NCBI RefSeq assembly: GCF_025449215.1
Contig: NZ_CP104900.1
Span: 1,984,001 to 2,048,000, forward strand
Reading direction: 5' to 3'
Source of the DNA: Shewanella seohaensis
Lineage (GTDB): Bacteria; Pseudomonadota; Gammaproteobacteria; Enterobacterales; Shewanellaceae
DNA length: 64,000 nt
The notes beneath the pieces are model-generated. The model saw only the letters and a program-made list of their open reading frames with translations, was not told the origin of the DNA and ran no database searches. Position 1 is the first letter of the stretch, and each line of letters begins with the position of its first letter. The translations under genes were made by a program, and so were the position numbers. Of this stretch, positions 1,519 through 57,221 are shown piece after piece.

Positions 1519-3184
1519 ATGAGCAAAACTAACTTACACAATTTCTGGTGCTTTTTGCTGCTTCTTTGGACATTTAGTCCGTTTGCCTTGAGCGCTGAAA
1601 TTGCGTTGGATTCCCCTATTTATTCCACGCCGATAATAAACAACAGCCACCGGCTGATTTTAATCAAGTGACTCAATGGATGAGCCAGCTCGAAGAGGCC
1701 AGTTCGGTGAGCCTTGCGGGGGCGATTATTGGATGGTGTCTCCCGTGATGGTCAACAGTCGCCAAAACCATTGGGTGGTGGATGCCAGTAATTCCATTGT
1801 CGAATCGGTCGATTATTGGTTGCTCGGCAGCGATGGTTCAGTGCAGTTTGCCCAGAGTGGTTACTATGCGCCCTATGAGTTTTTATTCGATTATGGCCGT
1901 AAAGTTAAGCTCAATATGGGGACGGATTATTGGTTAGTGACTCGGCTGAGCAGCCGATATTTCTCATCAGCCCCTGAGCTGGCTATTGAGTCGGAAGAAG
2001 TACACCAACTGACCACGGACCGCATGGCCTTGGCCATAATGATTTGTTTAGGTGGATTGTTTTTTATTGCGCTGTACAATTTGCTGATTTATATCTCTAT
2101 TTTTGATAAAGCCTTTCTATATTACGGCCTGTATGTGTTGACCTATTTTGGTGGTTGGGCCTTGACCTTCCATTTACCGGCGCACCTATTCAACTTTCAT
2201 CAGCTTGAGTTGCATCATCTGTTTTTTATCAGTTTGCCGATATTTAACATTCTGTTCTACAAACACTTCTTACAGCTTCCCAGCTATTCGCCGCGATTAT
2301 GGCGCCTTAGCAAGTACCTGTTAATCGCCTGCATTTTAGCCCTGCCAACCAGTGTGTTGTTATTGTCCTATACCGCGATTATTGCTTCGGTATTAATCAT
2401 GCTGTGGATTGCACTGGCCATTACTTGCGGCAATGTCTGTTTAATGAAAGGTTTTGCGCCTGCCCGTTATTTTATTATGGCTTTTAGCTGTTTATTGCTG
2501 CCAGCGTTAATTATTCTTCCGGGCAATATGGGGATCACCCCCGATTTTATCGAACATGCCGAGTTTGCCACGCTGCTGGGCGGCACAGTGGATGCTCTGT
2601 TGTTATCCCTCGCCTTAGCGAACAAGCTTAAACTGCTATCCGAGGAACGTAAGGCGCATATCGAAGAGTTAGGAATCGCTTGGGAAAAGGCCAGGCTCGA
2701 TGGTTTAACCCGAGTGGGTAATCGCTATGCCTTTGATGAGTTTATGAATTCACAATTGGCTTTTGGCAATAAAGTGGTTCAGCCAATGGCTTTGGTGTTA
2801 CTCAATGTCGACAGCCTTAAAATGGTGAACGATACCTTAGGCCATCAAGAGGGCGACCGTTTACTGCAACGCTTAGTACAGGTTTTGCAGGCGACTAATA
2901 TTGCTCACCTTAAAATTTATCGGATCAGTGGCGATGAGTTTGTGCTGATCCTGCCCGCAAATGGTATGGCAACCTTAACGACCTGCTTGAGGGGGTTAAC
3001 GACGCAATTTGCCGCTGAGGGCTTAAAGGATTGCCAGTTTAGTTTTGGTTTCGCCATTAATACCGATGTGGCCGAGCCCCACGAGTGGCTTCGCAGCGCC
3101 GATAGCAGTTTGTATCAGTCGCGGATGGAAAAGCGCCGTCAGGAATACGCCGATACCCGCGCGGGCGAGATTGTCTCGATTTAG
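1519..3184 (+). CDS. DISM-7TM GGDEF diguanylate cyclase, frame broken twice near the N-terminus
   Basis: The reading begins at 1519 with a signal peptide (MSKTNLHNFWCFLLLLWTFS..., cleavage near ALSA) and then needs all three frames. Frame 1 runs to about 1645, frame 3 covers the segment PPADFNQVTQWMSQLEEASS, and frame 2 runs from the G run at 1718-1722 onward. From there the protein is intact: a DISM extracellular sensing region, seven hydrophobic helices (about residues 120-320), then a GGDEF domain (DGLTRVGNRYAFDEF, NVDSLKMVNDTLGH) with active-site signature SGDEF instead of GGDEF. That variant is found in some active cyclases. Role: c-di-GMP synthesis in response to a periplasmic carbohydrate-like signal, inferred from the family. 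No EAL domain is present. A TTG/ATG restart at 1676 would lose the signal peptide, so the breaks are probably sequence errors. Confidence 0.8.
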
Positions 3185-3255
3185 AGTCTCTATTTAAAAG
3201 AGCCTCCATTTAATCGAGCGCCTCTTTAAATTTGAACACATACAAATAGTTGGAT

Positions 3256-3283
3256 AAAAAGGGGCTGCATAATGCAGCCCCTT
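3256..3283 (-). terminator. Terminator between convergent genes
   Basis: A 12-base stem (AAGGGGCTGCAT with its complement) followed on the minus strand by a T run. It lies between the ends of the GGDEF gene and the convergent oxidoreductase gene and may work in both directions. Confidence 0.75.
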
Positions 3284-3288
3284 GGTAT

Positions 3289-18871: not shown

Positions 18872-20147
18872 TTATGACTTAGGCTTAAACTTATCTTTCT
18901 CCAAGTTCAGTTTTTTCATTCTTAGGTACAGCTTCTTACGTGGGATCCCTAAGTAATTAGCGGCATCTGTTACCCTGCCTGAACACAAATACAGAATGTT
19001 CTCAATCACTTGCTTCTCATAGGCGTCGACGAGTTCATCGAGCGGTGCCTCGGGGGCTTGCACTAATTTAAGGGTTTCTTCGCCGGGGAGTTTGATAATG
19101 CCAACCGCATAGAGCTCGGCGAGGTTTCGCAGCTCGCGGATGTTTCCTGGCCAATGGTGGCGCTTGAGGATCTCTATGTAATTTAAGTCAATTTTAGGGA
19201 TAGGGATGTCAAAGCGCTTACAGCTTTGGCTCAGGAAGTTACGGAACAAGGGAATAATATCGCTCTTACGCTCGGCCAAGGTGGGCAATTGGATCCGAGC
19301 CTGTGAGAAGTAGTAATAGAGTTCGGGCAACAAAGCGCCGGTTTTGACCTCATCGTCGGGATTAGTATCGAAGATACAAATGGTTCTATGGCTTTTGGTG
19401 TTGAGTCTCTCTTGATCCAGCAGGCGAGTGCATAGCCAGCGTTGATGCTCGTGGCTCAGTTGAGTTAATGAACGCAGCACTAAGGTGCCGTTTTGGACTT
19501 TGGCAATGCTGGCCTCTAACTCGGTTAAGCTGGGGGACTCTTTACAGTCATGGATGATTAAGCTGTTGTTTTTATGCTGACTTAAGCTATGAAGCACGGA
19601 AGCGACTAAATGGCGACCCGTGCCGATTTGCCCCTCAATCATCACATCTTTATCGATTCTGGCAATCTGGCTCAGTTGCTGGCGGATCTGGTTGATTTGC
19701 TCGCTGGTGCCAAAGAGGTGCTCCTTAAAGGTGCTCGAAATCGCTTCCCGCTGTTCAATGATCCCTTGGCGGATCTGTTGTGCGCGCTTGAGCAGCTGTA
19801 AAAATTGCGCCGAATCGAGGGGTTTTTCGAGAAAATCGAATGCCCCCGTTTAACCGCCTCGACGGCCAGAGGAATATCACCATGACCAGTGATCATGATG
19901 ACGGGGATTTCGGGATCGATTTTTTCACTTCATTGAGTAAATCCATGCCATTCATCGCCGGCATATAAATGTCTGAGACGACAACCCCATTCCAATGTTC
20001 ATTGAGTAGGGCAAGGGCCTTAGTCGGCGAGTGGGTTCCCTTAGCGCTGTAGCCCGAAAGCTGCAACAAATGACGGTATGCCGTCAGTACATCCTCATCA
20101 TCATCGACGAGTAGCACGCTAAAGGGCGTCGAATTTTCAATCGGCAT
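18872..20147 (-). CDS. pgtA: PgtA-like response regulator with degenerate AAA+ domain, frame broken twice
   Basis: The full product of about 425 residues needs two 1-base corrections: one T in the run 19920-19925 (restores EVKKIDPEIPVIMITGHG) and one C in 19843-19847 (restores KRGAFDFLEKPLDSAQ). The receiver domain (1-120) keeps the acidic pair LLVDDDED, the phosphoacceptor VVSDIYMP and the lysine of LEKP. The AAA+ region has a weakened Walker A (GQIGTGRHLV), no GAFTGA loop and no Walker B acidic pair (NGTLVLRSL). It ends in a Fis-type helix-turn-helix (GRVTDAANYLGIPRKKLYLRMKKL). It therefore probably does not work with sigma-54. Its start overlaps the kinase stop. Likely partner: the pgtB-like kinase; likely target: the pgtP-like gene. 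Confidence 0.85.
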
Positions 20148-22508
20148 TGCGGAACTCCAAAATAATCATAGCGCCGCCATCTAAGTGTGATGCCAGATAA
20201 ATGTCAGCGTTAAAACGTTCGAGAATCGAGCGGCAGATGCTCAATCCTAAGCCTAGACCAACGGCCTTGGTGGTGGTAAAGGGGTGAAAATTTGCGGTAA
20301 AATACTTGGCGCAAATCCCGGGCCATTGTCGTAAATGGCCAGCGTCAGTTTGGCTGCGCTTTGTTCAAGCACAGTCACATAGATATGTTTATCGGTCTGG
20401 CTTGCGGTGGCATCCATGGCATTAATCAGGATGTTGAGCAGCACTTGCTCGACTTGAACCGCATCCACTTGGATAAGATATTCTTTAGTTAACCCATTGT
20501 GAACAATGATGTTTTCGTTGTGCGCGCGGGTTTCGACCAGTACCAGCGCGTTATTCACCAGTTGATTGATATCGATACTGACGCTCTCCACCTGCGTGGG
20601 GGACTTGCGCGCAAAGTTACGGATAGCCGAAATAATTTTTGCCATCCTAAGGTTCATCTTTTCCGTCTTACCGAGCATCTCGGTGAGTAACTCGAGTTGA
20701 TTGGTCTCAAGCGCCAAGCGGCAACTGTATAAATAGGTGCTGACGGCCGACAGCGGCTGGTTTAACTCATGGGCAAGGCTGGTCATGGTTTGGCCGACCG
20801 CCGCCATTTTGGCCGCTTGGATAAGGTCTGCCTGCGCTTGATGTAAATGCGCTTCCGCCAGTTTGCGTTGCTCAATTTCTGCGGTTAACTCTTGGTTTTT
20901 CACCGTGAGGTTTAAGGTTCTGTCCGCCACTAAGCGTTCGAGTTCGCGGGTGTTTAGCTCCTGTTTAGTGATGTCGGTAATCGTCACCATATACTTGGCT
21001 TGGCGAGCGTGTTCGAAAGCCTGTAGGTGAAAATGTAAGTACTGCGGCGCGTTATGTTTCACTAAATTAAGGATGCATTCACTTTGTCCTGTCCGGCTCA
21101 ATTCGCTATCGGCGGCGAATTGCGCCAATAATTGTGGTTGGCAAGCGGCAGGAAACGCCTGCCACAGGGTCAATTGCGGCGAGAGTGTGTTCAGACTCAA
21201 TAATTGCAATGCATGGGGGTTAGCAGATTCGATTTCGCCATTGGGATGACAGGTGATCAAGCTGGCTTGCGCGTTATTGATCAGCGTTAGCGCATTGCTT
21301 TTGACCATGGCCTGCATATCGACACAGAACTGCCGTAAACAGTCTCCCATATGGCCAATTTCATCTTTTCCTTGGGTGGTGATAGGCCAATCTAAATGGC
21401 CGTCGGCTACATTTTTCAGGTCAATTTCGAGGGTATTGAGGCGCTTTAATACCCGTTGGCGGATAAGCACTGTCAGCACTAACACACTGATCACAATAGA
21501 GATGATAGAGATAAGCACAATTATCAATTTGCCATTGATGATCATCGACTTAGTGTTGGTGTTGAGGGAGTTAAACGCTTGGCTCGATTGTTCGAGTGTC
21601 GCAATGTTTTTGAGGTGAAATTGGGTTAACACTTGGGTTAAGGGGTCGGCTAATTGGGATAAGGCCAATTGCGCCTGGGTATCCAATTTAAGTAGTCGGA
21701 TCAATTCACCATTAGAGCTAATCAGGGTGATGAGATTCTTCATGATCTGTCTATGGCTGATTGTCGAAGGGAAGCTAGTGAGTTTCTCCACTAAGGTTTC
21801 GATTTCAGCGATTTTTTGATCCAGATATGAGAAGGCACTAGTTAATTCCCGGGTGTATCTCTGGTCAATAATCTCATTCACTAGGGTAAATAGCTCAGTC
21901 TCCTTGGTCGATAACTCCTGCAGAATAAAGAACTCATTCATTAGGGCATTCGGCGATAGGTTATCGACAGGGTGCGAGAGTAACCGAGTGACGTGCCACT
22001 CGACTTCCTGCATCAAAGGTGTCATCTCATCATTCAAATCCTGATGCAACCAAGTGATACGTTTTTGAAGGTTATCAAGCTCTTGGCTATAGGCTATTTT
22101 TTGCTTTAACAATGTGTCCTGTTGTTCGATTAAACGGGAAAAGTGCTCGAGTGCCAGCCTTTGCTCTGGGAGTAATTGGCGGTCGGGGTTGCTGCTGATA
22201 TAGGCTTGCTTAATCGTGTCGATTTCATTTTTTAAATCGTTCTCAAAATTTTGATAGCCGAGTTCATCATTAATTTTATAACTGTTCGAGATAATGCTTT
22301 GCAGGTTTCCACTAGAGCGTTCGAGCATATAAGCGCCATTTAACGGTGGCAGACTGTGCTCGACAATATGATTGATTTTATTACTCAGTTCTTCCCAAAT
22401 GAGCACTGTCGTAATACCAATAAATAGATTTAAGAACGTCATGCTCGCAAAGGCGAGCATTAATTTGCCGCCTAGGGATGTGGGTATTTTAAAGTAATTC
22501 GTTTTCAT
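20137..22508 (-). CDS. pgtB: PgtB-like sensor histidine kinase, frame broken near the C-terminus
   Basis: About 790 residues when one base is restored in the G run at 20281-20284. That converts IFTPLPPPRPLV-stop into IFTPFTTTKAVGLGLGLSICRSILERFNADI and ends at 20137. Architecture: TM1 near residue 15, a large helical periplasmic sensor, TM2 near 335-350 (LIIVLISIISIVISVLVLTV), HAMP, a PAS-like segment (about 410-520), the H-box SLAHELNQPLSAVSTYLYSC near residue 590, N-box LLNILINAMDA and G-box YDNGPGFAP. It starts inside the stop of the periplasmic component (ATGA) and overlaps the regulator, so the three are translationally coupled. Role by family: senses organophosphate such as phosphoglycerate. 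Confidence 0.85.
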
Positions 22509-25577: not shown

Positions 25578-26620
25578 ATGAAAAAAGTCATATTAACCGC
25601 TTCAGTGCTTGCAGTGTCTTCATTACCTGTGATGGCCGATGAGTCTCCTGCAGTCTATGGTCGTCTGGATTTATCCGTGACCCATTCCGAATTAGGTTCA
25701 ACCGTTTATAGCGGTACCAGTGGCGTTGATGTGGGGGAAAGCGGCACCTATCTTGAAAACAATTCTTCCAATATTGGCGTTAAGGGCAAATCGGCACTCA
25801 GTGATGGCATTAATGTCATCTACAAGATGGAGTTTGGCGTTAACAACACCTCTAATCGGGCGAACGATTCCAGCAAGGTATTCTCGGCGAGAAATACTTA
25901 CCTTGGCGTTGAAACGGCCTACGGCACCTTGCTTGTCGGGCGCAATGATACGGTTTTCAAAACCGCCGAAGGCAAAGTCGATATTTTTGGAACGACCAAT
26001 GCGGATATTAATCAATTGGTCTCAGGGCAGACGCGTAGCGCCGATGGTATTTGGTATTACTCGCCTAAGTTATTCGGCCTGATGGATATCAACGCAACTT
26101 ATTTATTACAGGATAACTATGGCGCCGATAATGAGCTGTATGCCCTAAGTACCACGCTTGGGGATAAAGATCTTAAAAAGGCGCCTTATTATGTTGCCGC
26201 CGCCATCAATAAAGGGATCGCCAATATCGATGCCTATCGGTTTGTGACCCAAGTTAAGCTTGGCGACATGAAACTGGGCGGGATTTTTCAACATACCGAA
26301 AGCTTAAAATTTTCCAATATGGAGGGTAACTCCTATTTCATTAACGCCACCTACGACCTCTGGGGCACCACATTAAAGGCCGAGTTTGGCCAAGACAACG
26401 CGGGTTTGGGCGGTTATTTTTCTAAACTCGTTGGCCCAAATGAGCAGATAACAGATGTGGACATTAGCCAATTTACCCTTGGCGCAGAGAAAAAATTGAC
26501 CAAATCGACCCGTGTATACACCCATTACGCTATGTATGAGGGTGAGTATCAAATGTCTGGCATTACCCAAGACATTGGCGACGATAAGGTCTTCACAGTC
26601 GGTGTTCGTTACGTTTTTAA
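25578..26620 (+). CDS. Gram-negative general porin
   Basis: About 347 residues. A signal peptide (MKKVILTASVLAVSSLPVMA) precedes the porin start DESPAVYGRLDLSVTHSE; then come NNSSNIGVKGKSALSDGINVIYKMEFGV and RNTYLGVETAYGTLLVGRNDTVFKTAEGKVDIFG, the loop-3 constriction region of OmpC/OmpF-type trimers. As written the frame runs on to 26648 with a tail KRFNSSRVC. One extra T in the run 26614-26618 would instead end the protein at ...VGVRYVF, the C-terminal Phe that barrels require. I take 26620 as the true end. It lies downstream of the pgtP-like gene and would admit its substrate. Confidence 0.85.
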
Positions 26621-32612: not shown

Positions 32613-32687
32613 GCCCGAAAATAAGCTAATGCATTGATTCAGCTTTTGATTCAGAGTTGATTCTAAAAGTGTTAGCTTATTTTGGGC
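32613..32687. terminator. Long inverted repeat between convergent genes
   Basis: GCCCGAAAATAAGCTAA (32613-32629) and TTAGCTTATTTTGGGC (32672-32687) pair over 16 bases with one bulge across about 42 bases of loop. It overlaps the end of the phosphatase/kinase gene. Likely a shared terminator or mRNA-stabilising stem. Confidence 0.55.
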
Positions 32688-34366
32688 TCTGATTGCTGTT
32701 CAGCATTTTGCGCTTGATAGGGCACAAACACCTTCAAAGAGGCGGGCAGGATATCGATATTGAGTTGCTCCGGCTCACAAATCTCGCCATCAATCACATA
32801 CTTGCATGGGGGCTGACTGCTGATCTTCACCTTTTTCGCGTGGGCATGTTTCACTTTACCCGTGTTGGCCGAGGGCGCAGAGTCGCTATTGGCGGCCTCT
32901 TTAATCCAGCCGGTAAAAGCCAGTTCAGCCAGACTGATAAGCTGTTCATTCGGCTCATTATTTGAATCTAACCAAGTGATATCCAACAAGCCGTCGGTCA
33001 TATTGGGTTCGCCCTTACCTTGGGCGAGTAAGCTGGTAAAAGGTGCGGCATTGGCAACCACTAGGCTGTGGGTTTGCACTGTCATTGGGGCTTGGTCATC
33101 TAAAGTCAGCTGCAACTCGAGGTTGGTGTCAGTATTCACTGCGCGCCACAAACCATCGAGGTAGGCGAGTTGGCCGAGAGCATTTTTACGCTCGCGGCTC
33201 GCCGACTCAATCATTTGCTGCTCAAACCCAATGCCGACCAGCAGCAACACCAGCCGCTCATTGCAACGCGCCGTGTCTATGGTCTGAGTCTGACCTTGGA
33301 TAATATTATCAAGGGCTTGGGAGACAGCATTGAGCTTACTGCTTAAACCAAAGAGGGCGTGTGACAGGGCATTGGTGGTGCCTAACGGGATAATGCCTAA
33401 GGTGATATCGGTGTCGATAATCTCCGCCGCGACCTCTGTGACTGTGCCATCGCCACCGCAAGCGATGATGATATCGGCGCCCTGAAGCCGTGCTTTTTCG
33501 CTTGGGTTTGGGCGCTAATCTCTGGCGTGGTGAGCGCTAACTGCACTTCAAAATAGCGTTTCAGTTCAGTGCAAATTTGTTCGCCATGGCTCTGCCATTT
33601 TCCCGCGCCAGAGACGGGATTGGCGATAATCCAGGCTCGCTTATGCAGTTTGATTTCCCCTTGAGTGTACATCTGCTCCAGCGCTTTAAGTTGCCAGCGA
33701 TTTAACCTAGCGGTTTTACGAATGCTTTTAATCTGTTGCAGCACCTCCGCAAAACTGAGTTCGGGACGGCGGCATACAAGATAAGCGGCCAGCACCATTA
33801 CGGAGCGCCCGCGGCCGAGCGCACAGTGGATTAATACCCGCTTTTGGGCGCGTACTTGACGGTGTAACCAGTTAATCGCCTGATTTAATTGGGCGCTAGT
33901 TGGCACGCTGTGGTCAAGAATAGGGATATTCAGATAGTCGATATGATCCTCATACAGGGACACATCGAGGCCGTCGAATTCGGCGGTGACATCTAAAATA
34001 GCGGTAATGCCATAACGATTCAGTTTAGGTAAATCGGCAGCGCTTAAGCGGCTACCCAAGTACAGATATTTATCAATGGCTTGCATTGAAGGCACGCTAT
34101 CGCGGCGCCGCGCCCAGAGATTATAGAGTCGGCATCCTAATAAAAATGGAATAAAGCCCCAACGGATATACCAAGGGATGGATCCATCCTGACGTTTTCT
34201 AAAAATACTGGCGAGATTAAACCAATAGGCCGAGCCGACAAGGGCGAGGATAGGCTGCTCCATGCCCAAATAAAGGTGAGAATAGGGAGTGCCCCGTTAC
34301 GGCGAAATAGCCAAATAACAGCGCTCCGAACAGGTAGAAATACTTAATGTGGATCCTACTCAGCAT
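32672..34366 (-). CDS. Dual-specificity phosphatase fused to diacylglycerol/sphingosine-kinase-like domain, frame broken twice
   Basis: About 565 residues. The best start is ATG 34366 behind GGAGGAG, giving a membrane helix (IHIKYFYLFGALLFGYFAVTG). Reading continues only if one G is removed from the C/G run at 34292-34295. A second break needs one more base in the T run 33494-33498, restoring QAKKARLQGADIIIACGGDGTVTEVA. Domains: two membrane helices (1-65), a dual-specificity phosphatase with ILDVTAEF and the active-site loop VLIHCALGRGRSVMV (about 160-175), then a DAGK/LCB5 lipid-kinase domain with IIANPVSGAG and the GGDGT nucleotide loop. The combination suggests phospholipid-linked dephosphorylation and phosphorylation at the inner membrane. 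Substrates unknown. Confidence 0.8.
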
Positions 34367-34519
34367 TGGCATCTCCTCCATTGATAAGCGGCGAGCCTCA
34401 GGAAACCCACTTTATCGTGACCAATAGCTGTCACGATAAAGTGGTTCGGTGGTACTCAATTGAACTGTGGTTCCCCTGATGGGCTCGTATGCGGGACTCA
34501 CTACTTGCCGTCATCCGTT

Positions 34520-44627: not shown

Positions 44628-47032
44628 AGGGGTTCTCCTTCTTGGAATACGTTTGAATAATGGCCTAATGCGCTGGCTGAATGTGGTGCTATCGTTTTCG
44701 CTGCAGTCTTATCTGCAATCTTATCTGCAACAGGAGTGGCTGACTGAGCTGCCGATTGCGGCATAAGCGGCGCAAGGGAGAGTGGCACTCTATGGCTGAT
44801 AAGTTGAGCTAAGCACTTGAGTAAACTGGTGATCGTATCGCTGCCCTTGGCATTGCATGCCATGGCTAATATCGGTTGTTCCTGTGTTTGAACGCCATCG
44901 GCGCCCAACTCTAGTTGGCGGCCGATTTTATCGATAAGTGTGCTGGTTTGACGATCGGCGCCCACCTCGACAAATAAGCGCGCACCTTGTTGATACGCGG
45001 TGTTAATCAGCGCGGTAAAATTCAGCGGCGCACAAAAGGTGTCGGCAATAGTCTTGGCAATGCTTTGGCTATCGATACTGACGGCGCTTTGCTGCGCTGC
45101 GCTAATAAAACGCACCTGAGTCTCGCAGGCATTCGCCTTTAAGCCCAAGGAATAAAACCTTTGGATAGCGTTGTGCTGTGACTGCGAGGGCGGGGTATGC
45201 ATGGCGGTGACTTTATTGCTGGCAATACCACGCTTATTCAGCCTTTTAAGGAGTTGTAAGCAGCTTGCTTCGCAGCCCGCGAGAATACAGGTATCGCCCT
45301 GTTCGATGGCTAGATAAACCCGTGGAAAATCATTCAGCAGGGCATTAATTTCGGCGCGAGAGGCTCGCACTAAAAAGCTATTCCATACTAGCGGTGCATC
45401 TTCATTCAACTGCCAATCGCGGCGCACCGCAAGCAGTGGGCCTGAAATCTCCTGATTGAAGATGGCGCTGTTTTGAGTCGCGTGAATCAGGGCATGTGGC
45501 GTTTGCCAGATATCTAAACTTGCCCACATGGCCGCTTCACCCATGGAATAGCCCAGAGCGAGTTGCGGTCGGATATTAAAGACTCGAGTCAACAGCCGAC
45601 TAAATAGGTAACTGGCGCCAACACCGCTAATCGCAAGCTGGCTTAAGCTCATCTCTGCCGCGTCTTTTTCTGCGCTTTTCGTATTATTTGTGCCTTGGTA
45701 AATCACCTCGGCCTGCAGCATGGCGGCTAAATCTCCTTCGCGTTCAAGCTCGCGATAAAGTTCAGGGAAATAGCCGTGTAAGTCGCTGAACATATTCGGG
45801 TAAACCGTGCCGACGCCGGGGTAGACAAAGGTTAAGCCCGTATCGCCGAGGGGTGTTGGCGTAAAATAACTGCCCGCTGGGGTCTTAAAGGCTAGATTGG
45901 CCAATGGCGTTGACGCTGGCGTTTGGGCTGGAGCTGGCGCAGGAGTCTGTTGCGTCTTTTCAATATAAGCGCGCATCGCCTTGGCTTCTTGCATTAGCTC
46001 TTCAACTGAGCCAGCTATCAGCACTAAGGCTAATTTATCCTTTGCTTGATAGCGCTCAAACCAATCATTGCCTTGGCTGCTGAGCCAGTTCGTATCAGGT
46101 AGGCACGCCGATAAATCTAATGAATCAATCAGTTGTGATAACTGTACCGTTAAAGACTCAAGCGTGTTGCCACTGATGGGAATAAACAGCCTGTTGGCAT
46201 TGAGTAATGGCTGAGCGATAAGTCGAGTGCCTTGGGTCAAGATAAGGCTCTGGGCTGTCTGATCTTGAGGGGCTTTATCCAAGAGATTACCCAAGAGATT
46301 TAGGCTTAACACTCTTGCCTGATGGGGCTTGGTAAACCAATAGCCGTTCTGCGCGTTTTTTACGGGCTTTTCAGCGCGCTGTTCAGCGTATTGTTCAGCA
46401 AGTTGCGCTGCATCAGTCGCCTCAAGCATTGGTTCAATGCCTTTGAGGCTGCGATGACTTAACGCCTCAACCGCTTGAGATAATACATTCAACTGACTGG
46501 CAAGATTGCCTGCCTGCGCGTAGCCATTAACCGCTTGAGCACAATCGCGTTTTGCCAAGCTAAAAGCGCTGCTTAAGCAGCGCTCGACGGTATTTGTATT
46601 GATAGCATTTGTTTCTTCGACTGTTTCAGCTTGGATTTGCGCTAATGCTGAAATATAAGCCTCGGCATGCAGGTGTAACTGCGCTGCCATCAGCCCATCG
46701 AGCAGATACAGGCTGCGGACTTGCTGCTGATATTCAAAGCGAATTTCAACAAGTTGTTTTTGCGCAATATGGGCGAGTTGTTCAGTGATCAAGGCGACCA
46801 GTGTAGGCTCATCAGCTGGCTCATTAATCAGTGGCTTATCTTCAACATTGAGCTGAATTCGACAAGCCATCAACTGCTGCAGCTTACTTACATCGGTTGG
46901 TGCATGGTTAAGCACACTCTGCATCCACCCATCACCAATCCATACGGCTATTCGCAGTGGCTTGGCATTGGGATGCGGACTGTTTAATGCCGCATTGCTT
47001 AATGCGGCATGCGCGCTTGGGTCGAGTGTCAC
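44624..47032 (-). CDS. pfaB: PUFA synthase acyltransferase PfaB
   Basis: 802 residues from GTG 47032, overlapping the pfaA stop as GTGA. The C-terminal half is an acyltransferase domain: FVYPGVGTVYPNMFSDLHGYFPELYRELE, the nucleophile elbow LALGYSMGEAAMWASLDIW near residue 496, VRRDWQLNEDAPLVWNSFLVRAS and ARLFVEVGADRQTSTLIDKIG. The N-terminal half is a diverged ketosynthase-like/linker region of low conservation. PfaB is known to influence which PUFA (EPA or DHA) is made. This one is in the EPA-type Shewanella arrangement. Reads in a single frame. Confidence 0.94.
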   Translation of the reverse strand: MTLDPSAHAALSNAALNSPHPNAKPLRIAVWIGDGWMQSVLNHAPTDVSKLQQLMACRIQLNVEDKPLINEPADEPTLVALITEQLAHIAQKQLVEIRFEYQQQVRSLYLLDGLMAAQLHLHAEAYISALAQIQAETVEETNAINTNTVERCLSSAFSLAKRDCAQAVNGYAQAGNLASQLNVLSQAVEALSHRSLKGIEPMLEATDAAQLAEQYAEQRAEKPVKNAQNGYWFTKPHQARVLSLNLLGNLLDKAPQDQTAQSLILTQGTRLIAQPLLNANRLFIPISGNTLESLTVQLSQLIDSLDLSACLPDTNWLSSQGNDWFERYQAKDKLALVLIAGSVEELMQEAKAMRAYIEKTQQTPAPAPAQTPASTPLANLAFKTPAGSYFTPTPLGDTGLTFVYPGVGTVYPNMFSDLHGYFPELYRELEREGDLAAMLQAEVIYQGTNNTKSAEKDAAEMSLSQLAISGVGASYLFSRLLTRVFNIRPQLALGYSMGEAAMWASLDIWQTPHALIHATQNSAIFNQEISGPLLAVRRDWQLNEDAPLVWNSFLVRASRAEINALLNDFPRVYLAIEQGDTCILAGCEASCLQLLKRLNKRGIASNKVTAMHTPPSQSQHNAIQRFYSLGLKANACETQVRFISAAQQSAVSIDSQSIAKTIADTFCAPLNFTALINTAYQQGARLFVEVGADRQTSTLIDKIGRQLELGADGVQTQEQPILAMACNAKGSDTITSLLKCLAQLISHRVPLSLAPLMPQSAAQSATPVADKIADKTAAKTIAPHSASALGHYSNVFQEGEPL

Positions 47033-50000
47033 TTAACACTTACCTCGGCCGAGCTTTGGGCGACTGCCTGCTCTTGCGTTTGTTGCTGAGGTTTATTGGC
47101 CAAAAACGCTTGGTTGAGCGTCTTACTGACAGTAACCTTGGCCCGTTTCATCTCGCAGCTTAATCGGCCATCTTGATGATAAAGCGCAATATTGGCTTCA
47201 AGTGAACGGGACGAATGCTTGAGCACATCCAGCACTAATACCGCCTTCTCGCCAAAATCTAAGGGCGAATAGGACACAAACTCGCCAATGGCACTGGGTA
47301 AGCTTGCCGCTTGATATTTAAGGCGCGCCCACACGAGCATGGCCTGCAATAACAGATCTTCGGCAAAGGGTTGTGTGCCTTTATCCTCAAGATTTGGCGC
47401 AAACTCGCCGCAGTCATCTAATGCCACCGTTGGCAGTGCTACCTTAGCGATAAGCTGCTGATCATCAAAGGCGAGCACTTCGCTTATGCCTTGCAGTCTT
47501 GGGCCATGGAACAGTGTGCCATCGCTGTAGAGCGACTCACGGTTCGCGATAGCGGGTTGCTGTGCCATCTCCTGCATCAGAGAATGTAACTCACCAACCT
47601 CGAAACGCTGTTCGTCTGGCATATCATCCGTCTGCGCCACTAACACTGCCTGATACTGCGGGCGACCTTCAAAGCTTATCAGCGCGGTTAAGGCCTCAGT
47701 CGATTGCTGTGTAGCGTCGGCAAGCGGCGTGAGCATTAGTTCGAGCTCAATCGGCGCATCGCGGGCAAGTAGCGCCTCATCGAAGATAATTCCCTTGAGT
47801 AGTCGATAATCGCTGACACTCACCGCCTTACCTAAATGGGCCTTGGCGGCCTCACGCATCCAATCGATGGCGCATACCGTTGGCAACACCGCATGACCGT
47901 TGATGCAATGATCCTCAATAAAGCTCATGCGTTTAGGGTCGAGGCTGCGCATGACGCGAATACTTTGCGGCACCGTTTGGGCCATAGGCTGCGGATCTAA
48001 CGCCGTGGTTAGATCCGCTTCAGGCTTTTTGCTGATGCAGCTTCAACAGTATTGGCGGTATTGCCCTGCATATCGGTTCCGACCAACAGCTGCGCTCCCG
48101 TATCACTTAATAATTGGTTGGCAAATAACTCGGCACCGGCTTTGAGTGGAATGACATAGACCCCACGGTCGATAAACATCTTTTTCAGCGCAGGATTGAC
48201 CATGCCGCCATCCCAAGGACCCCAGTCAAAGCTCATCACCTTGGCGTGAGGCAATTGCTGCGCGAGTTGCAGCGCGGCCTTATTGAGAATGTCGTTAGAC
48301 ATGGCGTAGTCGCTCTGGCCGGTATTGCCGTAAAAACCCGCCGCCGAAGAGAACATGGCGATGAGCGTTAACTGGCTAAGATCCAGTGCCGACAGCAGAT
48401 TGTTAAGTCCGGTCACCTTAGTGCCATAAACGCGTTCAAGTTCACTTAAAGTTTTGTCTTGAATATGTTTGTCGGCAAGTACGCCCGCGCCGTGGATAAT
48501 CCCCGTGATGGGCGATAGGGCGTTGATAGGCGCAATCGTGCTGGCAATGGCGGTAGGCTCGTTAACATCCAGGCTTAAGTATTCGGCGCTGGCGCCCACG
48601 GCTTCAAAGGCCTGTAAGGCATGGCTGATTTCAAGGCTGCTTTGTACTGGCCAAACTAAGGCATCCACTTGTTTTGGTGTGGGTTTATCACCCATACTTT
48701 GCAGATGTGCAATGGCAGCGGCTTTCAGCTCGTTGCGATTTTTACCCTGAGCCCAAGCGGGGATCCCCTGATGGGCGCTGCGTCCCGCGAGGATAAAATG
48801 GGCCTTGCAGCGTTTCGCTAAACTTAAGGCGCACTCGAAGGTAACGCCCTTAGCGCCGCCTGTGACGAGGATTTTGTCCGCTGACGAGAGAGACGCGCCA
48901 CTGCGGCGAAGCACGGCATTGCCCGCGACTAAGGTGGTGCGCTCAAGCTCGCTATCAATACCGACTTCGACTGGCGCATCTTGGAGATAGTATTCCTGCA
49001 CTACCGCATTAGCGACCGTCTTAGCGTCCAAGTTTGGCGCGATATCCAGCGCGCGGCAGACCACTCCCGGCCACTCGTGATTTAAGGTTTTAGTGAGCCC
49101 AGAGAGCGCCGCTTGGTTGAGTTCACTTAGGCTAATAACAGCGCCAGCCGACTCGTCCATGCCTATATAGCCAAAGCCGCCGTCGATACGGCTGACGGTG
49201 ACAAAGCGGCAGTGGTCGCGCTCAGTTAACAGCGGTTGTAAGTGTTTGGCGAACAAGAAGGCTTGCTCGACCGAGGCTTTGGCGTCGTCTGCCAGCACTA
49301 AGCCAGCACCTTTATCCACATCGGACTTATGTTGTGGCTGCAGATGAATAAAACCAGCGATTTGGCCAAGCGCTTCAATCTGATTGATGACCTCACAAAT
49401 GCTTTCATCATCAATCGCCTCCAGCGTGAAGCTGGCAATATGGCTATCGAGTGGTGATGCGCTGGTTACAACCGTTTTCGGTGAGCGTACAACCGCGACC
49501 TTAACGCCTTGGGCGTGAAGCTTTTCGGCAATCACCCCCGCGTTGTGGCCATCGTCGCCGATAACGACGTAACTGTTTGCCGTCAGTTGAACATCGCTAG
49601 TTGCTATGATGCGCGCTAACTCAGCCGCCGCTGGCAACTTTTAGCATCACCTCACTATGGGGCGGCAGGTCGATGGTTTCCTCGACGGTTTCTGCAGTTG
49701 CCTCTTGAATCTCTTGAATTGTCGCAGCATGGTTTTGCTGTGGCGCCTCACTTGATGCTTGCGAACCCGCATAGAGGGCGACAATTTCACCCAAGGTGCG
49801 ACACTCGGCTAAATCTTCAGGGCTGAGTTCTGGCAGGTTTGGCAGTTGATCTTGTACTGTGCCTAAAATTTCCACGCGCTTGATGGAATCGATACCAAGG
49901 TCGGCTTCCATATCCATACTCAGTTCCAGCATTTCCACGGGATAGCCTGTCTTGACGGCCACGACCGCCATCATAGTGCGTTCAATCTCGCCATTAGAAA

Positions 50001-53000
50001 CCGCTGCACTTGCTGCTACTGCACTTGCGAGTGCTGCATTTTGTGTCGCATGGCTAACTGAGGCTGCAGCTGTTACAGGAGCCGCTTGGCAAAAGAGCGC
50101 GACAATTTCCCCAAGGGTGCGACACTCGGCGAGATCTTCTGGGCTCAGTTCTGGCAGGTTCGGTAACTCGTCCTGCACTGTGCCTAGAATTTCCACGCGC
50201 TTGATGGAATCGATACCAAGGTCGGCTTCCATATCCATGCTCAGTTCCAGCATTTCCACGGGATAACCAGTCTTGTCTGCCACGACCGCCATCATAGTGC
50301 GTTCAATTTCATCATTAGAAACCGCCGCGCTGGTGGCTACTGCACTTGCGACTACTGCATTTTGTGTCGCATGGCTCACTGTGGCAGCAGCTGTTACAGG
50401 AGCCGCTTGGCTAAAGAGCGCGACAATTTCCCCTAGAGTGCGGCACTCGGCTAAATCCTCAGGGCTCAGTTCTGGCAGGTTCGGTAATTCGTCCTGTACT
50501 GTACCTAGAATTTCTACGCGCTTGATAGAATCGATACCAAGGTCGGCTTCCATATCCATGCTAAGTTCCAGCATTTCCACGGGATAGCCAGTCTTGTCGG
50601 CCACGACCGCCATCATAGTGCGTTCAATTTCATCATTAGAAACCGCTGCGTTTGTGGCTACTGCACTTGCGAGTACTGCATTTTGTGTCGCATGGCTAAC
50701 TGAGGCAGTAGCTGTTACAGGAGTCGCTTGGCTAAACAGCGCCACAATTTCCCCTAGGGTGCGGCACTCGGCTAAATCCTCAGGGCTGAGTTCTGGCAGG
50801 TTCGGTAATTCGTCCTGCACTGTGCCTAGAATTTCCACGCGCTTGATGGAATCGATACCAAGGTCAGCTTCCATATCCATACTGAGTTCCAGCATTTCCA
50901 CGGGATAGCCTGTCTTGTCGGCCACGACCGCCATCATAGTGCGCTCAATTTCATCATTAGAAACCACCGCACTTGCTGCTACTGCACTTGCGAGTACTGC
51001 ATTTTGTGTCGCCTGGCTAACTGTGGCTGCAGCTGTTACAGGAGTCGCTTGGCTAAATAGCGCCACAATTTCCCCAAGAGTGCGACACTCGGCTAAATCC
51101 TCAGGGCTCAGTTCTGGCAGGTTGGGTAATTCGTCCTGTACTGTGCCTAGAATTTCCACGCGCTTAATAGAATCGATACCAAGGTCGGCTTCCATATCCA
51201 TACTGAGTTCCAGCATTTCCACGGGATAACCCGTTTTATCGGCAACCACTGCCAGCATGGCGGTCTCAATTTGTTGCACGACTGACTTATCGGAAAGCGC
51301 GCGAGTTGCTGTCGCCACAGTTTGCATTTGTGGTTGTGCGACTTGTGGTTGTGTTACTTGGGGTTGCTGAGCTTGGGGTTGCTGAGCTTGGGGTTGCTGA
51401 ACTTGGGGCTCACTCGCAGGCGCAACAGTCGCTTTTGGCTCTGTAACTAACGCTTGAACCACGGACGACTGAGCTGGAGCGACAGGTTGTGCCGCTGTAA
51501 CTGCCACTGGTGCAACCGTCACAGGTGCCGCTTGAGTGGGGGCTTGAACCTGAGGCGCAGGCATTTGGCCGAGTAGGGCTAAAGCAGCTTGGCTGCTGCT
51601 GGTCTGCAATTGCATAAATTCAGCATGGCTCTTTAGGGTTTGTGCCTGATGCTGGTGGAACAGCTCCATAGAGCGTTGCAGGCTCTCCGGAATGGCAATG
51701 CCAAGGCTTGCCATTTTGGCTTGCTCAGCCATCAGGGCACTGACGGTATCGCCGTATTGCTGCGGTATCGCTAAAAATTGTTGATGTAATTGCGCTGCCT
51801 GGGTTTGGGCTGCAAAAAAGGCGCTCAGGGCATCTTGATTCGCCTGTCCAGTGGTAACGCTGGTTGGCTGCGCAGACGTTTGTTGTTGAATATTATTGCT
51901 ATTTTGTGCCACTGACTTTTCCACTTCGACAACCTTTTCTAGAAATTTTTCGACAATCACTGGTTTTTCAACGACTTTCTCAACGAGGCGATCCACATAC
52001 TGCACTTGGCTGGTAATTTTGCCCGATTGCAGTGAATCGACCATTTTGTTGCGGGTCGCTGGGCTGATGTAGTTAGTCGCATTGAGCTTGATATTCATCG
52101 CCGAAGGCATTGCAGGTGCAATCAATTCGGCTTGATAAGGGTCAATCTCACCCAGTTTTACCCCAGCGACCGCCAGTTGCACCGCAGCGCTGCGCAGTTG
52201 GCTATCGGAGTCGGCTTTAGGATTCGGGTTAATGCTGATAAGGCAAAGCTCGTTTAACTGCGCGGCGAGAGTATTTTCTGTCAACTTCTGCAGAATGTTT
52301 TTCGGGCCGAACTCGACAAACACCCGTGCGCCAGCGGCATACATGGCCTCTAGCTGCTCGCTAAAGTGCACCGATTGCAGCATATGATCTTTAAAGGCCG
52401 CTTTGATGGCATTGGCATCGGAGGGATGTAGCTTGCCTGTGCCATTGGCATATAGGGCAATCTTTGGCGCGTTGAACTGAGCCTTATCGATGGCTTCGCT
52501 AAAGGGCTTTTGCGCATGGGCAACCAATGGCGTGTGGAAGGCGCCAGAAACGGGCAGGGCTATCGCCTTAAAGCCTAACTCGCCAATGGCCTTAGCGGCC
52601 TGTTGTGTCGCTGTGGTAGCGCCTGCAATCACCAGCTGAGTCGGTGAGTTGTAGTTGGCAATCTTGACGTCGTCAAACTGCGCCAGGCAATCGTTGACTG
52701 CCTCAATATCTTGTTTTTGCTTAAGAATAACAGCATACATGACGCCAGCATCACGACTGGAGTCGGCATCCTGAGGTGACTGCGCCATTGCATGACCACG
52801 CTCAAAGGCCAGCTTGATGTAGTCATCCATTGAGATAACGCCTGCGGCGCACAGGGCCGAAAGCTCACCAAAGCTATGACCTGCGAGCATATCTGGGGCG
52901 AAACCCGCTTGAGTCAACAGGGTGTACTGCGCCATAGAGATCGCGCCGATGGCGCTTTGGGCATAAAGGGTATTGGTTAATGCACTTTCCTGCGCTTTTC

Positions 53001-54981
53001 TCGATTCGTCATCGAAGGCGGGGATCGGGTACAGCACGCTTGAAAGCGAAGCCTCACCACGGTCGCTAAACACTTTATCGCTGGTGTGGATATGGCGACG
53101 AAGCTCGGGGAAGTTGTTGGCAATTTCCAGTCCCATATTCAGGTATTGCGAGCCTTGGCCTGCAAATAGCGCGGCGATCTTGGTTTGCTCATTGACTAAG
53201 GCCTTGGCGCGGTAGCTGATCCCAGAAGGTAACTGCCAGCTCTCGGCGCTATTGGATTCTAGCTGTGCTATCGCTTGGGTTAACAGAGTCTGTAACTGGG
53301 CATAGTCCTTGGCAATAAAGCCAAGACGGGCCGATTTTGGCTCTAGTTCACGCAGGGCATAGGCTTTTGCAAAGGCAACAAAATGCGCCTGAGAAAGCTC
53401 TGCTTTGGCCGCAGTTGCTTGCTGCAGCGCGGTTTTTAACTCGCCCAGCAGCGCGGTTTTGTCGGCGGCGGCAAACAACCAGCTTTGCGCTACGCTGCGC
53501 TGGCGATAGGCGTCATCGCGCGCGTGTTCGGGGTGATATTCTTCGAGCACTAAATGGAAGTTAGTGCCCCCAAAACCGAAGGAGCTGATCCCTGCGCGGC
53601 GCGGTGTATCGTCACTGCGTTGGATCCAAGGGCGCGCCTCGGTATTGAGATAAAAGGGCGAGCGGGCAATGTTTAATTTAGGGTTGGGCTGACTGACGTT
53701 AATCGTTGGCGGCAAGACTTTATGGTGCAGCGCCAATGCTGCTTTAATCACACCCGCCGTGCCCGCGGTGGATTTAGTATGACCCACCTGAGATTTGACT
53801 GAGCCTAGGGCGATATGCTGTAACTGATCATTATCCTTCGAGAATACTGAGGTTAAGCCATTAAATTCGGCCACATCGCCTGCTGCTGTGCCTGTGCCGT
53901 GGGCTTCAATCAAGCCAACGGTGTGCGGCGCAAAGCCTGCGTCATCATAGGCGCGCTCTAATGCTTTGGCTTGGCCTTCGGGGCGCGGTGCATAAATGCT
54001 CTTAAATTTACCGTCCGATGATGCGCCTACGCCTTTGATTACCGCATAGATACGGTCGCCATCGCGCTCGGCATCGTCGAGGCGTTTTAAGGCGACCATG
54101 CCAATCCCTTCGCCAATCATCATGCCCTTAGAGTCGATATCGAAGGGTTGAATCTGTTCGTTGGTGGTAAAGGCTGGCGTTTTTGAGAAACTCATATACA
54201 TGTAGGGCGAGTTGTCGGTACAGACACCGCCGGTAATCATCATGTCGCTGCGACCCTCGGTCAGTTCGGTCAGCGCCATACGCATGGCGGCAAGCGAACC
54301 TGCGCAGGCAGCATCGACGACGCAGTTCATCCCGCCTAAATCGAAACGGTTGGCGATGCGTCCGGCAATCACGTTGCCAAGGGAGCCAGGGAAAGAGTTT
54401 TCTTCCCAGTGGACATATTGATCTTGGAATTTTTTGATCAGCAGCTCGCTATCTTCATCACTCAGCCCACTGCTTTTAAATACTTTTTTCAGCACTGGGT
54501 ATTGCAGGCGCGCATTGAGGCTATGGCTTAACTTTTGGCCTCCGCCAATCCCGAGGGTGATGCCGATGCGGTCACGGTCGTAGTCGTCTGGCAGATTGGC
54601 ATCTTGCAGGACTTCCTTGGCGACGACCAGTGAGAGTAACTGCGAGCTGTCGGTGAGTTCCAAAATATTGGGTGGCAGACCAAACTCCATCGGATTGAAG
54701 TCGACCTCTGGCATAAAACCACCGCGTTTGCAGTAGCTCTTATCGGCCTTGGACTTATCCGCATCGTAATAGTCATCAATCGACCAGTGGGATTCGGGCA
54801 CGTCGGTGATTGCATCAATTTTGTCGCAAATTAAATCCCAAAATTTATTCAAATAGCGGGAGTTAGCAAAGATACTCGCCATGCCAACGATGGCAATCGG
54901 CATATCTTTTAAGCGTTTATTCAGTCTCTTATCGGCTTTTTCATCGGTTGATAATTGAGGCTGTGATGGGGTATGGCTCAT
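47029..54981 (-). CDS. pfaA: PUFA synthase subunit PfaA (KS-MAT-5xACP-KR-DH), frame broken twice
   Basis: About 2650 residues. Ketosynthase 27-470 (active Cys in VVDAACAGSLAAM, HGTGTAAGD, KSQVGHTKSTAG); malonyl transferase with FAGQGSQYLNMG and AGHSFGELSALCAAG near 700; a Q/P-rich linker; five acyl carrier domains (1237-1745), each with LGIDSIKRVEILG (serine is the phosphopantetheine site); a ketoreductase with ILVTGGAKGVTFECALSLA near 2034 and SSAAGFYGNTGQSDYAMSN; and a C-terminal dehydratase fold with DHCINGHAVLPTV. Breaks: one extra T in 49639-49642 (otherwise stops after LKVASGG) and one missing T in 48026-48030 (restores AKKPEADLTTALDPQPMAQT). Starts inside the pfaR stop (ATGA). Confidence 0.95.
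49770..51260 (-). repeat. Five 321-base tandem repeats encoding ACP domains
   Basis: The units repeat every 321 bases (107 residues) and are nearly identical in both the carrier domain and the linker (ATQNAVLASAVA...). The copy nearest the ketoreductase is the most diverged (VAVKTGYPV instead of VADKTGYPV, QDQLPN instead of QDELPN, a G for D in SNGEIER). Near identity at the DNA level indicates recent homogenisation and a potential for copy-number change. Confidence 0.95.
51336..51412 (-). repeat. 15-base tandem repeat encoding Q/P-rich linker
   Basis: Repeats of CTTGGGGTTGCTGAG (plus-strand view) encode the PQAQQ units of the linker just ahead of the first ACP of PfaA. Slippage here would change linker length in frame. 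Confidence 0.75.
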
Positions 54982-55847
54982 AACGAGTCTCCACTGGCAA
55001 AGCGTTTGGCCGTTGCCTTATTAAGGGATTTAGCGATGGCTTTTGGGGTTTGTACGCCAGGAAAGCGGGCTAAAAAAGTGTGGTAGTTGCGTACCAGTAA
55101 TTTACGCAGATGAAACGGCCCATCCTTCAGCACATAGGCGATGTAGCGATTGGCCGCTTGGGTGTTACTGTCTTGATAAATATCGATATAAATCCAATCC
55201 GCCTTGCTATCTATGCCAAGGAGTACCGATTTAGGCTCGGCCTCGGTCAATTGCGGCGGCAGGGTGAGAGACACCACTTGTACTACGGTATCGCCATCTG
55301 TGCTTGGCAGGGCAAGCGCCTTGGCCAAGGTTTCGGAGTTGACCGTGTAGGTCTGAACATCGCTGCCTTGGCTGATAGGCAATTGATTAAAATACTGTTT
55401 AGGCACAAGCTCTTGATCAAACTCATCGAGGCGCGAAACCCCATAACGCTTAAGGCAGCGGGCCAACCCCGAGCGGGACACATTGGGGTTGATAAAGGTT
55501 TGAGTGGCCTTGAGCAGTCTGTCTAACGGCAGTTTGAGCTGATATCTCAGTCCCACCACAACGTATTCTTCCATCGGAGTCAGGGTGGTATTGAGGTGAT
55601 GCGGCGTATTCGGGCTGTCGTTCACTGACTCGCGCTTGCGCCATTTACGCACCGTGGCTTCGGTAATATTTAAAATTTTGGCGAGCTGACTCACACTCAA
55701 TTCAGATTGCTGAATAAAGTGTCGCATCTCCGGCGTGGTCGTGGCATTGCGGTGCCTTGCCGTTTTGGGGGCGGACTTGTGCTCCGGGCTTGGCTTATCA
55801 GCCTGAGCATGATCCGCGGCTTGAGTACCCACTTTTCGAGAACTCAT
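54978..55847 (-). CDS. pfaR: Transcriptional regulator PfaR (transposase-like HTH)
   Basis: 289 residues. The middle carries a helix-turn-helix (MRHFIQQSELSVSQLAKILNITEATVRKWRKRESVNDSPN, about 42-82). A second helical domain follows (LTPMEEYVVVGLRYQLKLPLDRLLKATQTFINPNVSRSGLARCLKRYGVSRL), the winged pair used by IS481-type transposases, but the transposase catalytic D-D-E core is not evident. The rest is a beta-rich domain (SVLLGIDSKADWIYIDIYQD). By position and homology this is the activator of pfa expression. Its stop overlaps the pfaA start, so regulator and synthase are co-translated. The resemblance to transposases suggests domestication. Confidence 0.9.
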   Translation of the reverse strand: MSSRKVGTQAADHAQADKPSPEHKSAPKTARHRNATTTPEMRHFIQQSELSVSQLAKILNITEATVRKWRKRESVNDSPNTPHHLNTTLTPMEEYVVVGLRYQLKLPLDRLLKATQTFINPNVSRSGLARCLKRYGVSRLDEFDQELVPKQYFNQLPISQGSDVQTYTVNSETLAKALALPSTDGDTVVQVVSLTLPPQLTEAEPKSVLLGIDSKADWIYIDIYQDSNTQAANRYIAYVLKDGPFHLRKLLVRNYHTFLARFPGVQTPKAIAKSLNKATAKRFASGDSL

Positions 55848-56225
55848 GTTATTAGTGCTGTCCCATCTTTATTATTTTCATCCAACATAATCTATCGGGA
55901 CTGCTTAAACTTGCCTGCCAAAGCGGAGTGTAGACTCATGCTTAATCTAGGCTTAAAACCCGTGAGCTATGTGTTTTGTTACGCACAATGGTGATGCAGA
56001 TTACCTGAGGTTTCGGCTCGATACAATCATATGGGACTTGAAATGATTTTTTAATGTTCAAATGACTCTGTTCAAAGGAGCCCAACTCCTGTTTAGTACT
56101 GGGTTTATGTTTAAATAATCATTTAAATTCATAAAATTAGAAAAAATTAAGATACTGTTCGTCAGGCGAGTAGAACTGAGTAGAATAGGGCAGCCGTTAA
56201 ACTTAAGTGTTGTTGGGATAAGTTA
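55848..56225. promoter_or_regulatory. Divergent pfaR/pfaE control region
   Basis: 378 bases with no gene, AT-rich toward pfaE. It must hold promoters for pfaR-A-B-C-(D) and pfaE. I see a small inverted element GGAG-CCCAA-CTCC near 56078-56090 and a stretch of A/T tracts at 56100-56150, but no consensus site I can name. Confidence 0.5.
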
Positions 56226-57221
56226 ATGAATATTGAGCTTTTTTTATACCATTAACCGAAATGAATACGGCCAGTACGAATGCGTGTATGGCGCTCTTGA
56301 GTGAGGATGAGCGCGCCAAAGTGGCACGTTACCGGGCGCCCAAGGCGCAAATGAACGGCTTATTGGTGCGAGCGGCGCTGCGCTGCGTCTTGTCTCAAGG
56401 ACTGCAATCTTGCGGTGGAACCTCACCTTGCTCCTCCCAACGACAGATTGCCCCCAAGATTGGTGTTTTGAGTATGGGGCAAAGGGCAAACCCAGTCTTA
56501 ACCATGAGCAGTTTCTGAGTACTGGCATTGAGTTTAACTTGAGCCACAGTGGCGACTGGTTATTGATTGCCTTAGCGCAAGATGATGACAAGGGAGAAAA
56601 CGCTAACACAGCGCAACCCCGTTTAGGCTTGGGTGTAGATATCGAGCGTGCCCGCGCCAGTACTCATATTTACCCGATCCTTAATCATTATTTTTCCGCG
56701 ATTGAAACCGAAGGCTTATTAGCCCTTGAGGGCGAGGATGCGCAGCGGCAGCGCTTTTTTGATCTTTGGGCACTCAAGGAATCCTACATCAAGGCAACGG
56801 GTTTGGGCCTAGCGCAGTCGCTGAAATCTTTTGGTTTTGACTTAGCCCCAAACAGTTTGCTGGCGGTTGATGGTGGCGCGCTGCAAGCTGTCGACTCCCT
56901 AACTGGGTTGAGCTTAAGCTACAAGAGATCTTTGCTTCACCAAGCCAAGCTAAGCCCTGTTCTTATCTTCAACTCCCAACGCGTATTCCACTATATTCCA
57001 ATATTAAGCTGCGGATTGAACCTGAAACTGCACAGGATGCCACAAGCTCCCATGTACATCATTGGCGGAGTTATTTTGGCCGACTTAATGAGGAATATCG
57101 TTTTGGACTCAGCTTGGTTGATGGTGACAGCTTAGTGCAGGATGACAGGTTGGCGAAGGTGACTATTTCGATGCAGCTGACCAGTATCACTGCATTACTG
57201 GCGGCATGCTCTGCCATCTAG
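56226..57221 (+). CDS. pfaE: Phosphopantetheinyl transferase PfaE, frame broken three times
   Basis: About 332 residues reconstructed. Start ATG 56226: one more T in the run 56239-56245 gives MNIELFFIPLTEMNTASTNACMALLSEDERAKVARYRAPKAQ, the normal N-terminus of this class. A second missing base lies between about 56395 and 56420, and a third between about 56930 and 57000; the last restores ...HHWRSYFGRLNEEYRFGLSLVDGDS. Between them are the catalytic motifs: IEFNLSHSGDWLLIAL, LGVDIERAR (metal-binding acidic pair) and FDLWALKESYIKATGLGL. PfaE converts the apo-ACPs of PfaA to the holo form. Divergent from pfaR. Confidence 0.88.

What the first reader, a model, noticed from the sequence alone, without database searches (positions are those of the whole stretch)
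1519..57221. About a dozen genes broken by 1-base homopolymer changes: assembly error signature
Intact protein frames are interrupted at or near 1645 and 1718 (GGDEF), 11372 (DUF2461), 13528 (TonB receptor), 19843 and 19920 (PgtA), 20281 (PgtB), 26614 (porin end), 32381 (VpsR-like), 33494 and 34292 (phosphatase/kinase), 44251 (pfaC), 48026 and 49639 (pfaA), and 56239 plus two more in pfaE. Most sit in runs of 3 to 7 identical bases. All but two (34292, 49639) need a base added. Sequence on both sides is well-conserved protein, which decay would not preserve. Automatic annotation would wrongly call these pseudogenes or split genes.
Basis: partly seen in the sequence, partly recalled or inferred. 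Interest (0 to 1): 0.75.

Follow-up and report, generated by a model that had tools for sequence, protein, structure and literature searches.

The report
Long-read assembly errors, not pseudogenes
The broken genes in this Shewanella stretch are almost certainly sequencing and assembly mistakes in runs of identical bases, because the two overlapping ends of the same unfinished chromosome disagree with each other in just this way; it is an ordinary artefact that could mislead gene annotation.

Summary
Observation and interpretation both hold up. The window lies in a single 4,751,888-base contig of a Shewanella-like genome. Each gene is a single unbroken ORF in at least one close relative. The relatives split none of each other's ORFs of 150 aa or more there (0 of 40 each way).

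The decisive evidence is internal. The contig was not trimmed to a circle, so its ends hold the same 28 kb assembled twice. In the 16.4 kb where both copies are clean they differ at 9 places, all single bases in runs of identical bases, with no substitution. Of 16 relative's ORFs placed there, 4 are broken in one copy and intact in the other, and 1 is broken in both. The break type is genome-wide: 36 of 194 sampled ORFs, 39 of 42 breaks net one base short.

Substitutions show no excess on this lineage. This is uncorrected long-read homopolymer error, a known artefact. The window has no second copy, so single sites could still be real.

The parts
1519..3184 (+). 7TMR-DISM/GGDEF protein gene, frame broken near 1613-1617 and 1718-1721; one 555-aa ORF in both relatives
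   Evidence: Pfam PF07695 and PF00990
10884..11641 (-). DUF2461 protein gene, frame broken near 11373; single ORF of 252 aa (G015) and 237 aa (G051)
   Evidence: Pfam PF09365
11767..14030 (+). TonB-dependent receptor gene, frame broken near 13527; single 757-aa ORF in G015, no counterpart in the G051 stretch
   Evidence: Pfam PF07715 and PF00593
18872..20147 (-).
   Evidence: receiver domain matched only at positions 1-70 of 111
20140..22508 (-).
25578..26648 (+). Porin gene that runs past the relative's stop because of a frame break near 26613; 347-aa ORF in G051, 356 aa here
   Evidence: Pfam PF13609
31185..32624 (+).
32672..34434 (-). Dual-specificity phosphatase joined to a YegS-like kinase part, four frame breaks near 33494, 34248, 34285 and 34401; single ORF of 578 aa (G015) and 588 aa (G051)
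   Evidence: Pfam PF00782 and PF19279
38704..44627 (-). pfaC, frame broken near 44250; single ORF of 1973 aa (G015) and 1985 aa (G051)
47029..54981 (-). pfaA, frame broken near 48026 and 49639 (the latter a two-base shortfall); single ORF of 2628 aa (G015) and 2657 aa (G051)
56225..57221 (+). pfaE (4'-phosphopantetheinyl transferase superfamily), frame broken near 56239, 56451 and 56899; single ORF of 332 aa (G015) and 329 aa (G051); outer limits approximate
   Evidence: Pfam PF01648

Best explanation
The frame breaks are consensus errors of an unpolished long-read assembly. The base caller or consensus step under-counts runs of identical bases, more often the longer the run, so single bases (once two) are lost at roughly 0.2-0.3 per kb all over the chromosome. 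In the living cell the genes are most likely intact. Shown: the two copies of the same 28 kb at the contig ends disagree in this way; the breaks are genome-wide and nearly all in one direction; relatives have the genes intact. Inferred: the window's own 19 places have the same cause, and the platform is nanopore or older PacBio.
For: (a) Terminal replicate: contig bases 3-28394 align to 4723438-4751887; the tips are noisy (355 mismatches and 433 gap openings in all). In the clean core of 16,408 columns there are 9 differences, all single-base, all in runs of 2-8 identical bases, 0 substitutions. (b) Of 16 G015 ORFs placed on that core, 3 are broken only in the start copy, 1 only in the end copy, 1 in both, 1 in the end copy next to its noisy tip, 10 in neither. 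(c) At the 7 of 9 differences that could be aligned to G015, the longer copy has fewer gaps against G015 at 6 (at one of these it is still one base short). (d) 20 sampled stretches: 36 of 194 G015 ORFs of 150 aa or more are split in this genome, 42 breaks in 241 kb, 39 of 42 net one base short. (e) GGDEF: 68 matches make 61 domains, 7 of them split, all 7 in the same phase, against 1 of 60 in G015. (f) Window rate: 11 breaks in 46.0 kb against 8.0 expected from the sample, P = 0.19, so the window is not special. (g) Window-only run changes are all contractions and rise with run length. (h) Substitutions on the window branch 1,008 against 1,032 on G051's; in the 7 broken genes comparable in all three genomes 344 of 474 are at third codon positions against 336 of 438 on G051's branch, Fisher P = 0.17.
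Against: The window has no second copy, so none of its 19 places is directly re-read. One core gene is broken in both copies: a shared error or a real break. At 1 of 7 core differences the shorter copy matches G015. GGDEF contrast alone is weak (two-sided Fisher P = 0.061). In the sample, 9 of 202 own ORFs are split in G015, not resolved one by one. Pooled dN/dS against G051 is higher in broken genes (0.123) than in intact ones (0.074), although residues out of frame at the breaks inflate it. In the tRNA synthetase family the five open frames with matches show no split. Two genes carry more breaks than an even spread predicts (pfaE 3, P = 0.005; phosphatase/kinase 4, P = 0.003, uncorrected), although overall spacing fits uniform (KS P = 0.78).
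Confidence: 0.96

Rival explanations
1. The breaks are real: the strain is a mismatch-repair mutator or is undergoing gene decay, and has accumulated run contractions.
For: Mutators do gain run-length indels (recalled); one core gene is broken in both terminal copies; pfaE has three breaks; pooled dN/dS is somewhat higher in broken genes.
Against: The two copies of one locus disagree. The frames holding the MutS and MutL domains are open for 888 and 665 codons. No substitution excess on this branch (1,008 against 1,032). Third-position share is kept in the broken genes. Window-only run changes are all contractions. Broken sample genes include PriA, Rep, FadB and FadJ together.
Confidence: 0.02
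2. Mixed case: most breaks are errors, but one or a few of the 19 are true frameshifts of this strain.
For: Real bacterial genomes hold some pseudogenes (recalled); of five core genes broken away from the tip, one is broken in both copies; G015 itself has one split GGDEF domain.
Against: G015 against G051 over the same region shows 0 of 40 ORFs of 150 aa or more split in either direction, so true breaks are rare here; pfaE, the likeliest candidate, evolves on this branch like on the others (20 private changes, 6/5/9 by codon position, against 6/4/10 in G036).
Confidence: 0.12
3. The run lengths vary within the cell population (phase variation), and the two contig ends caught different variants.
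For: Two assembled copies differ at runs of identical bases.
Against: Differences occur even at runs of 2-4, breaks fall in many kinds of genes, and 39 of 42 sampled breaks are net one base short, not both ways.
Confidence: 0.01
4. The frames are joined in the cell by programmed frameshifting or transcriptional slippage.
For: Breaks sit in runs of identical bases, some of them A or T runs.
Against: Relatives carry the same genes without a shift; the breaks hit unrelated genes genome-wide and differ between two copies of the same DNA.
Confidence: 0.005

Closest known systems
Gene-fragmenting indel errors of long-read bacterial assemblies (PMC12007338, Kastor; passages seen)
   Same: Mostly false deletions tied to runs of identical bases, many apparent pseudogenes. 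The paper gives 34.23 indels per 100 kb for one older-chemistry assembly, most indels being false deletions; here 42 frame breaks in 241 kb of sampled ORFs, about 17 per 100 kb.
   Different: Platform and reads are unknown here; the evidence is relatives plus the contig's own terminal overlap.
Nanopore systematic homopolymer errors (PMC8011154, Homopolish; passages seen)
   Same: Mainly indels in homopolymers that shift reading frames and inflate pseudogene counts.
   Different: That work polishes with relatives; here nothing was corrected, and a nanopore origin is not shown.
Untrimmed overlapping ends of a circular chromosome contig (recalled; one search is a search listing only)
   Same: Contig start and end repeat the same ~28 kb, with noisy tips.
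   Different: Nothing unusual beyond having been left in the assembly.

Membership tests
Uncorrected long-read homopolymer consensus error | Two reconstructions of the same DNA disagree at run lengths | tested here: met
   9 single-base run differences and 0 substitutions in 16,408 columns of the terminal overlap; no second copy exists for the window itself
Uncorrected long-read homopolymer consensus error | Predominantly shortfalls, rising with run length | tested here: met
   9 shorter, 0 longer of 7,067 runs; 0 of 5,265 at length 2 up to 4 of 27 at length 6; 39 of 42 sampled breaks net one base short, 3 of the other phase
Uncorrected long-read homopolymer consensus error | Genome-wide, not confined to a locus or gene class | tested here: met
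   36 of 194 sampled ORFs split, breaks in 18 of 20 stretches; 7 of 61 GGDEF domains
Uncorrected long-read homopolymer consensus error | Accurate reads restore the frame | not testable with these tools
   no reads available
True pseudogenes / mutator genome | Relaxed selection or excess substitution on the lineage | tested here: not met
   1,008 against 1,032 branch substitutions; third-position share 344 of 474 against 336 of 438; against this, pooled dN/dS 0.123 in broken and 0.074 in intact genes, inflated at the breaks
True pseudogenes / mutator genome | Mismatch repair genes broken | tested here: not met
   frames with the MutS and MutL domains open for 888 and 665 codons; other repair genes not examined
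Programmed frameshift genes | Shift site conserved among relatives | tested here: not met
   relatives have single unshifted ORFs; pfaE also in G036 and G057

The most novel reading that the evidence does not exclude
The run-length differences are real molecular heterogeneity: a strain with open MutS and MutL frames that nevertheless tolerates widespread one-base contractions in its cell population, with frames rescued by slippage. The evidence does not strictly exclude this because no reads were seen.
Probability: 0.01. Interest if true: 0.7.

Novelty: not a real feature. Interest (0 to 1): 0.15.

Why it matters
By its description the genome search tool holds one genome per species, so this assembly may represent its species. 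By extrapolation its annotation would show some 700-800 broken frames that are mostly false (42 per 241 kb of ORFs, scaled to about 4.1-4.7 Mb; inference). Claims from it about lost EPA synthesis (pfaA, pfaC, pfaE), lost regulators or pseudogene content would be wrong. The method is reusable: an untrimmed contig overlap gives a free estimate of consensus error without reads.

Tried and rejected
Rejected: real decay, mutator, phase variation, programmed shift (see rivals). pfaE looked like a candidate for true decay (33 window-branch against 9 G051-branch substitutions in the three-way comparison), but with five sequences its private changes (20) match G036's (20) in number and codon position.

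A first comparison of my hand count (19) with the automated sample rate gave P = 0.006 for an excess in the window. That compares unlike counts; the like-for-like test gives P = 0.19.

The reverse comparison in the window (own ORFs of 150 aa or more split in relatives) gives 3 of 42 (G051) and 4 of 36 (G015); all these ORFs belong to genes already on the list, so I take them as the same breaks seen from the other side. For the 20-stretch sample the reverse figure is 9 of 202 and was not resolved.

Inferring the platform from the noisy tips (148 transitions to 152 transversions in the start tip, 39 to 16 in the end tip) was not decisive. Naming the species failed: one search found no relative; one search returned 33 Shewanella loci (best segments 85-89% in S. 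sp. ANA-3, S. sp. PS-2, S. decolorationis, S. xiamenensis) and says that very near records may be left out. Of the 36 broken sample ORFs, 30 were scanned for names, 6 were not.

Full report
What was checked. The window is bases 1984001-2048000 of a single contig of 4,751,888 bases. Two close relatives with the region in the opposite orientation were used: G015 (main aligned blocks 91-93% identical DNA) and G051 (93-96%). The G015 stretch lacks window 18.7-28.1 kb and the G051 stretch lacks the TonB receptor. Searches did not name the strain; the 33 named loci are all Shewanella.

The breaks. ORFs of the relatives were placed on the window by tblastn and the DNA compared. Eleven genes carry 19 breaks: GGDEF protein (2), DUF2461 (1), TonB receptor (1), PgtA (2), PgtB (1), porin (1), VpsR-like regulator (1), phosphatase/kinase (4), pfaC (1), pfaA (2), pfaE (3). 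Each gene is a single ORF in at least one relative. All 19 are shortfalls; 18 are of one base and one (near 49639) of two.

Is it more than chance? Of 7,067 runs comparable in all three genomes the window alone is shorter at 9 and longer at 0, G015 alone shorter at 3, G051 alone longer at 1; with one relative only, the window is shorter at 10 and longer at 3. The frequency rises from 0 of 5,265 runs of two to 4 of 27 runs of six. By one method, 8 of 34 (G015) and 9 of 40 (G051) relatives' ORFs of 150 aa or more are split in the window, while G015 and G051 split 0 of 40 of each other's (0 of 46 and 1 of 47 with a 90-aa cut-off).

The internal replicate. The GGDEF search showed one locus twice, split at the contig start and whole at the contig end. 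The contig ends overlap by about 28.4 kb. Differences are dense in the first ~10 kb and the last ~2 kb, as expected of thinly covered tips (inference). I set the clean core, after seeing that profile, at start coordinates 9,900-26,300: 16,408 columns, 8 places where the start copy is short, 1 where the end copy is short, no substitution. Of 16 G015 ORFs placed on it, three are broken only in the start copy, one only in the end copy, one of 498 aa in both, one of 1073 aa in the end copy next to its noisy tip, ten in neither. Two copies of the same chromosomal segment cannot both be right, so at least the discordant breaks are errors in one copy; at 6 of 7 alignable differences G015 sides with the longer copy, at 1 with the shorter.

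Genome-wide extent. Seven of 61 GGDEF domains are split, all in the same phase (two loci are counted twice because of the overlap); G015 has 1 of 60; the contrast alone has P = 0.061. In 20 paired stretches (292 kb aligned), 36 of 194 G015 ORFs are split in this genome with 42 breaks, 39 of them net one base short; the reverse is 9 of 202. Two of the 20 stretches show no break. The window's rate is not unusual (11 found, 8.0 expected, P = 0.19).

Is there real decay? The window's lineage has no excess of substitutions (1,008 against 1,032 on G051's side in 50,098 columns). In the seven broken genes that all three genomes share, 344 of 474 window-branch substitutions are at third positions against 336 of 438 for G051. 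Pooled dN/dS against G051 is 0.123 in broken and 0.074 in intact genes; the pieces near each break are partly out of frame and inflate the first figure. The MutS and MutL frames are open. pfaE has three breaks in about 1 kb but its private substitutions look like those of the other branches. Among 30 of the 36 broken sample genes that were scanned, models above their curated cut-off include Rep, PriA, FadB, FadJ and CreD; a strain lacking all of them at once is hard to credit (inference). Against this, the five open frames of the tRNA synthetase family show no split, so no strictly essential gene was shown broken.

Known context. PMC12007338 (passages) gives 34.23 indels per 100 kb for one older-chemistry long-read assembly, most indels being false deletions; PMC8011154 (passages) describes homopolymer indels that survive polishing and shift frames. 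The platform of this assembly is not known here.

Verdict. It matters for users of this genome, not for biology.

Noticed in passing
own contig bases 1-28394 and 4723438-4751887: Chromosome contig is untrimmed: ~28.4 kb is present at both ends, with error-rich tips (first ~10 kb, last ~2 kb). Its contamination estimate (2.47 against 1 for G015 and G051) may be inflated by this; that link is an inference.
   Followed up: yes
own contig near 19227-19236 (L009): A 498-aa ORF of G015 is broken in both terminal copies; either a shared systematic error or a true frameshift.
   Followed up: partly
window 49773-51272: pfaA holds a tandem array: four 104-aa ORFs on the opposite strand are spaced by 321 bases and the stretch aligns to the relatives in several registers; likely repeated acyl carrier protein domains, known for PfaA (recalled).
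   Followed up: no
window 18723-28127: A ~9.4 kb block with the PgtA/PgtB-like genes and the porin is present in G051 and absent from the syntenic stretch of G015.
   Followed up: partly
window near 28127: A further run is shorter than in G051, just upstream of or inside the first codons of the gene at 28136-28945; not counted among the 19 because the start codon is uncertain.
   Followed up: no
G015 C1 578272-578714: The relative G015 has one split GGDEF domain of its own; the own-genome GGDEF at 8869-9321, at about the matching place, is open.
   Followed up: no
between window 14804 and 14852: G015 carries an extra stretch of about 1.3 kb here with a 398-aa ORF that has no match in the window.
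   Followed up: no
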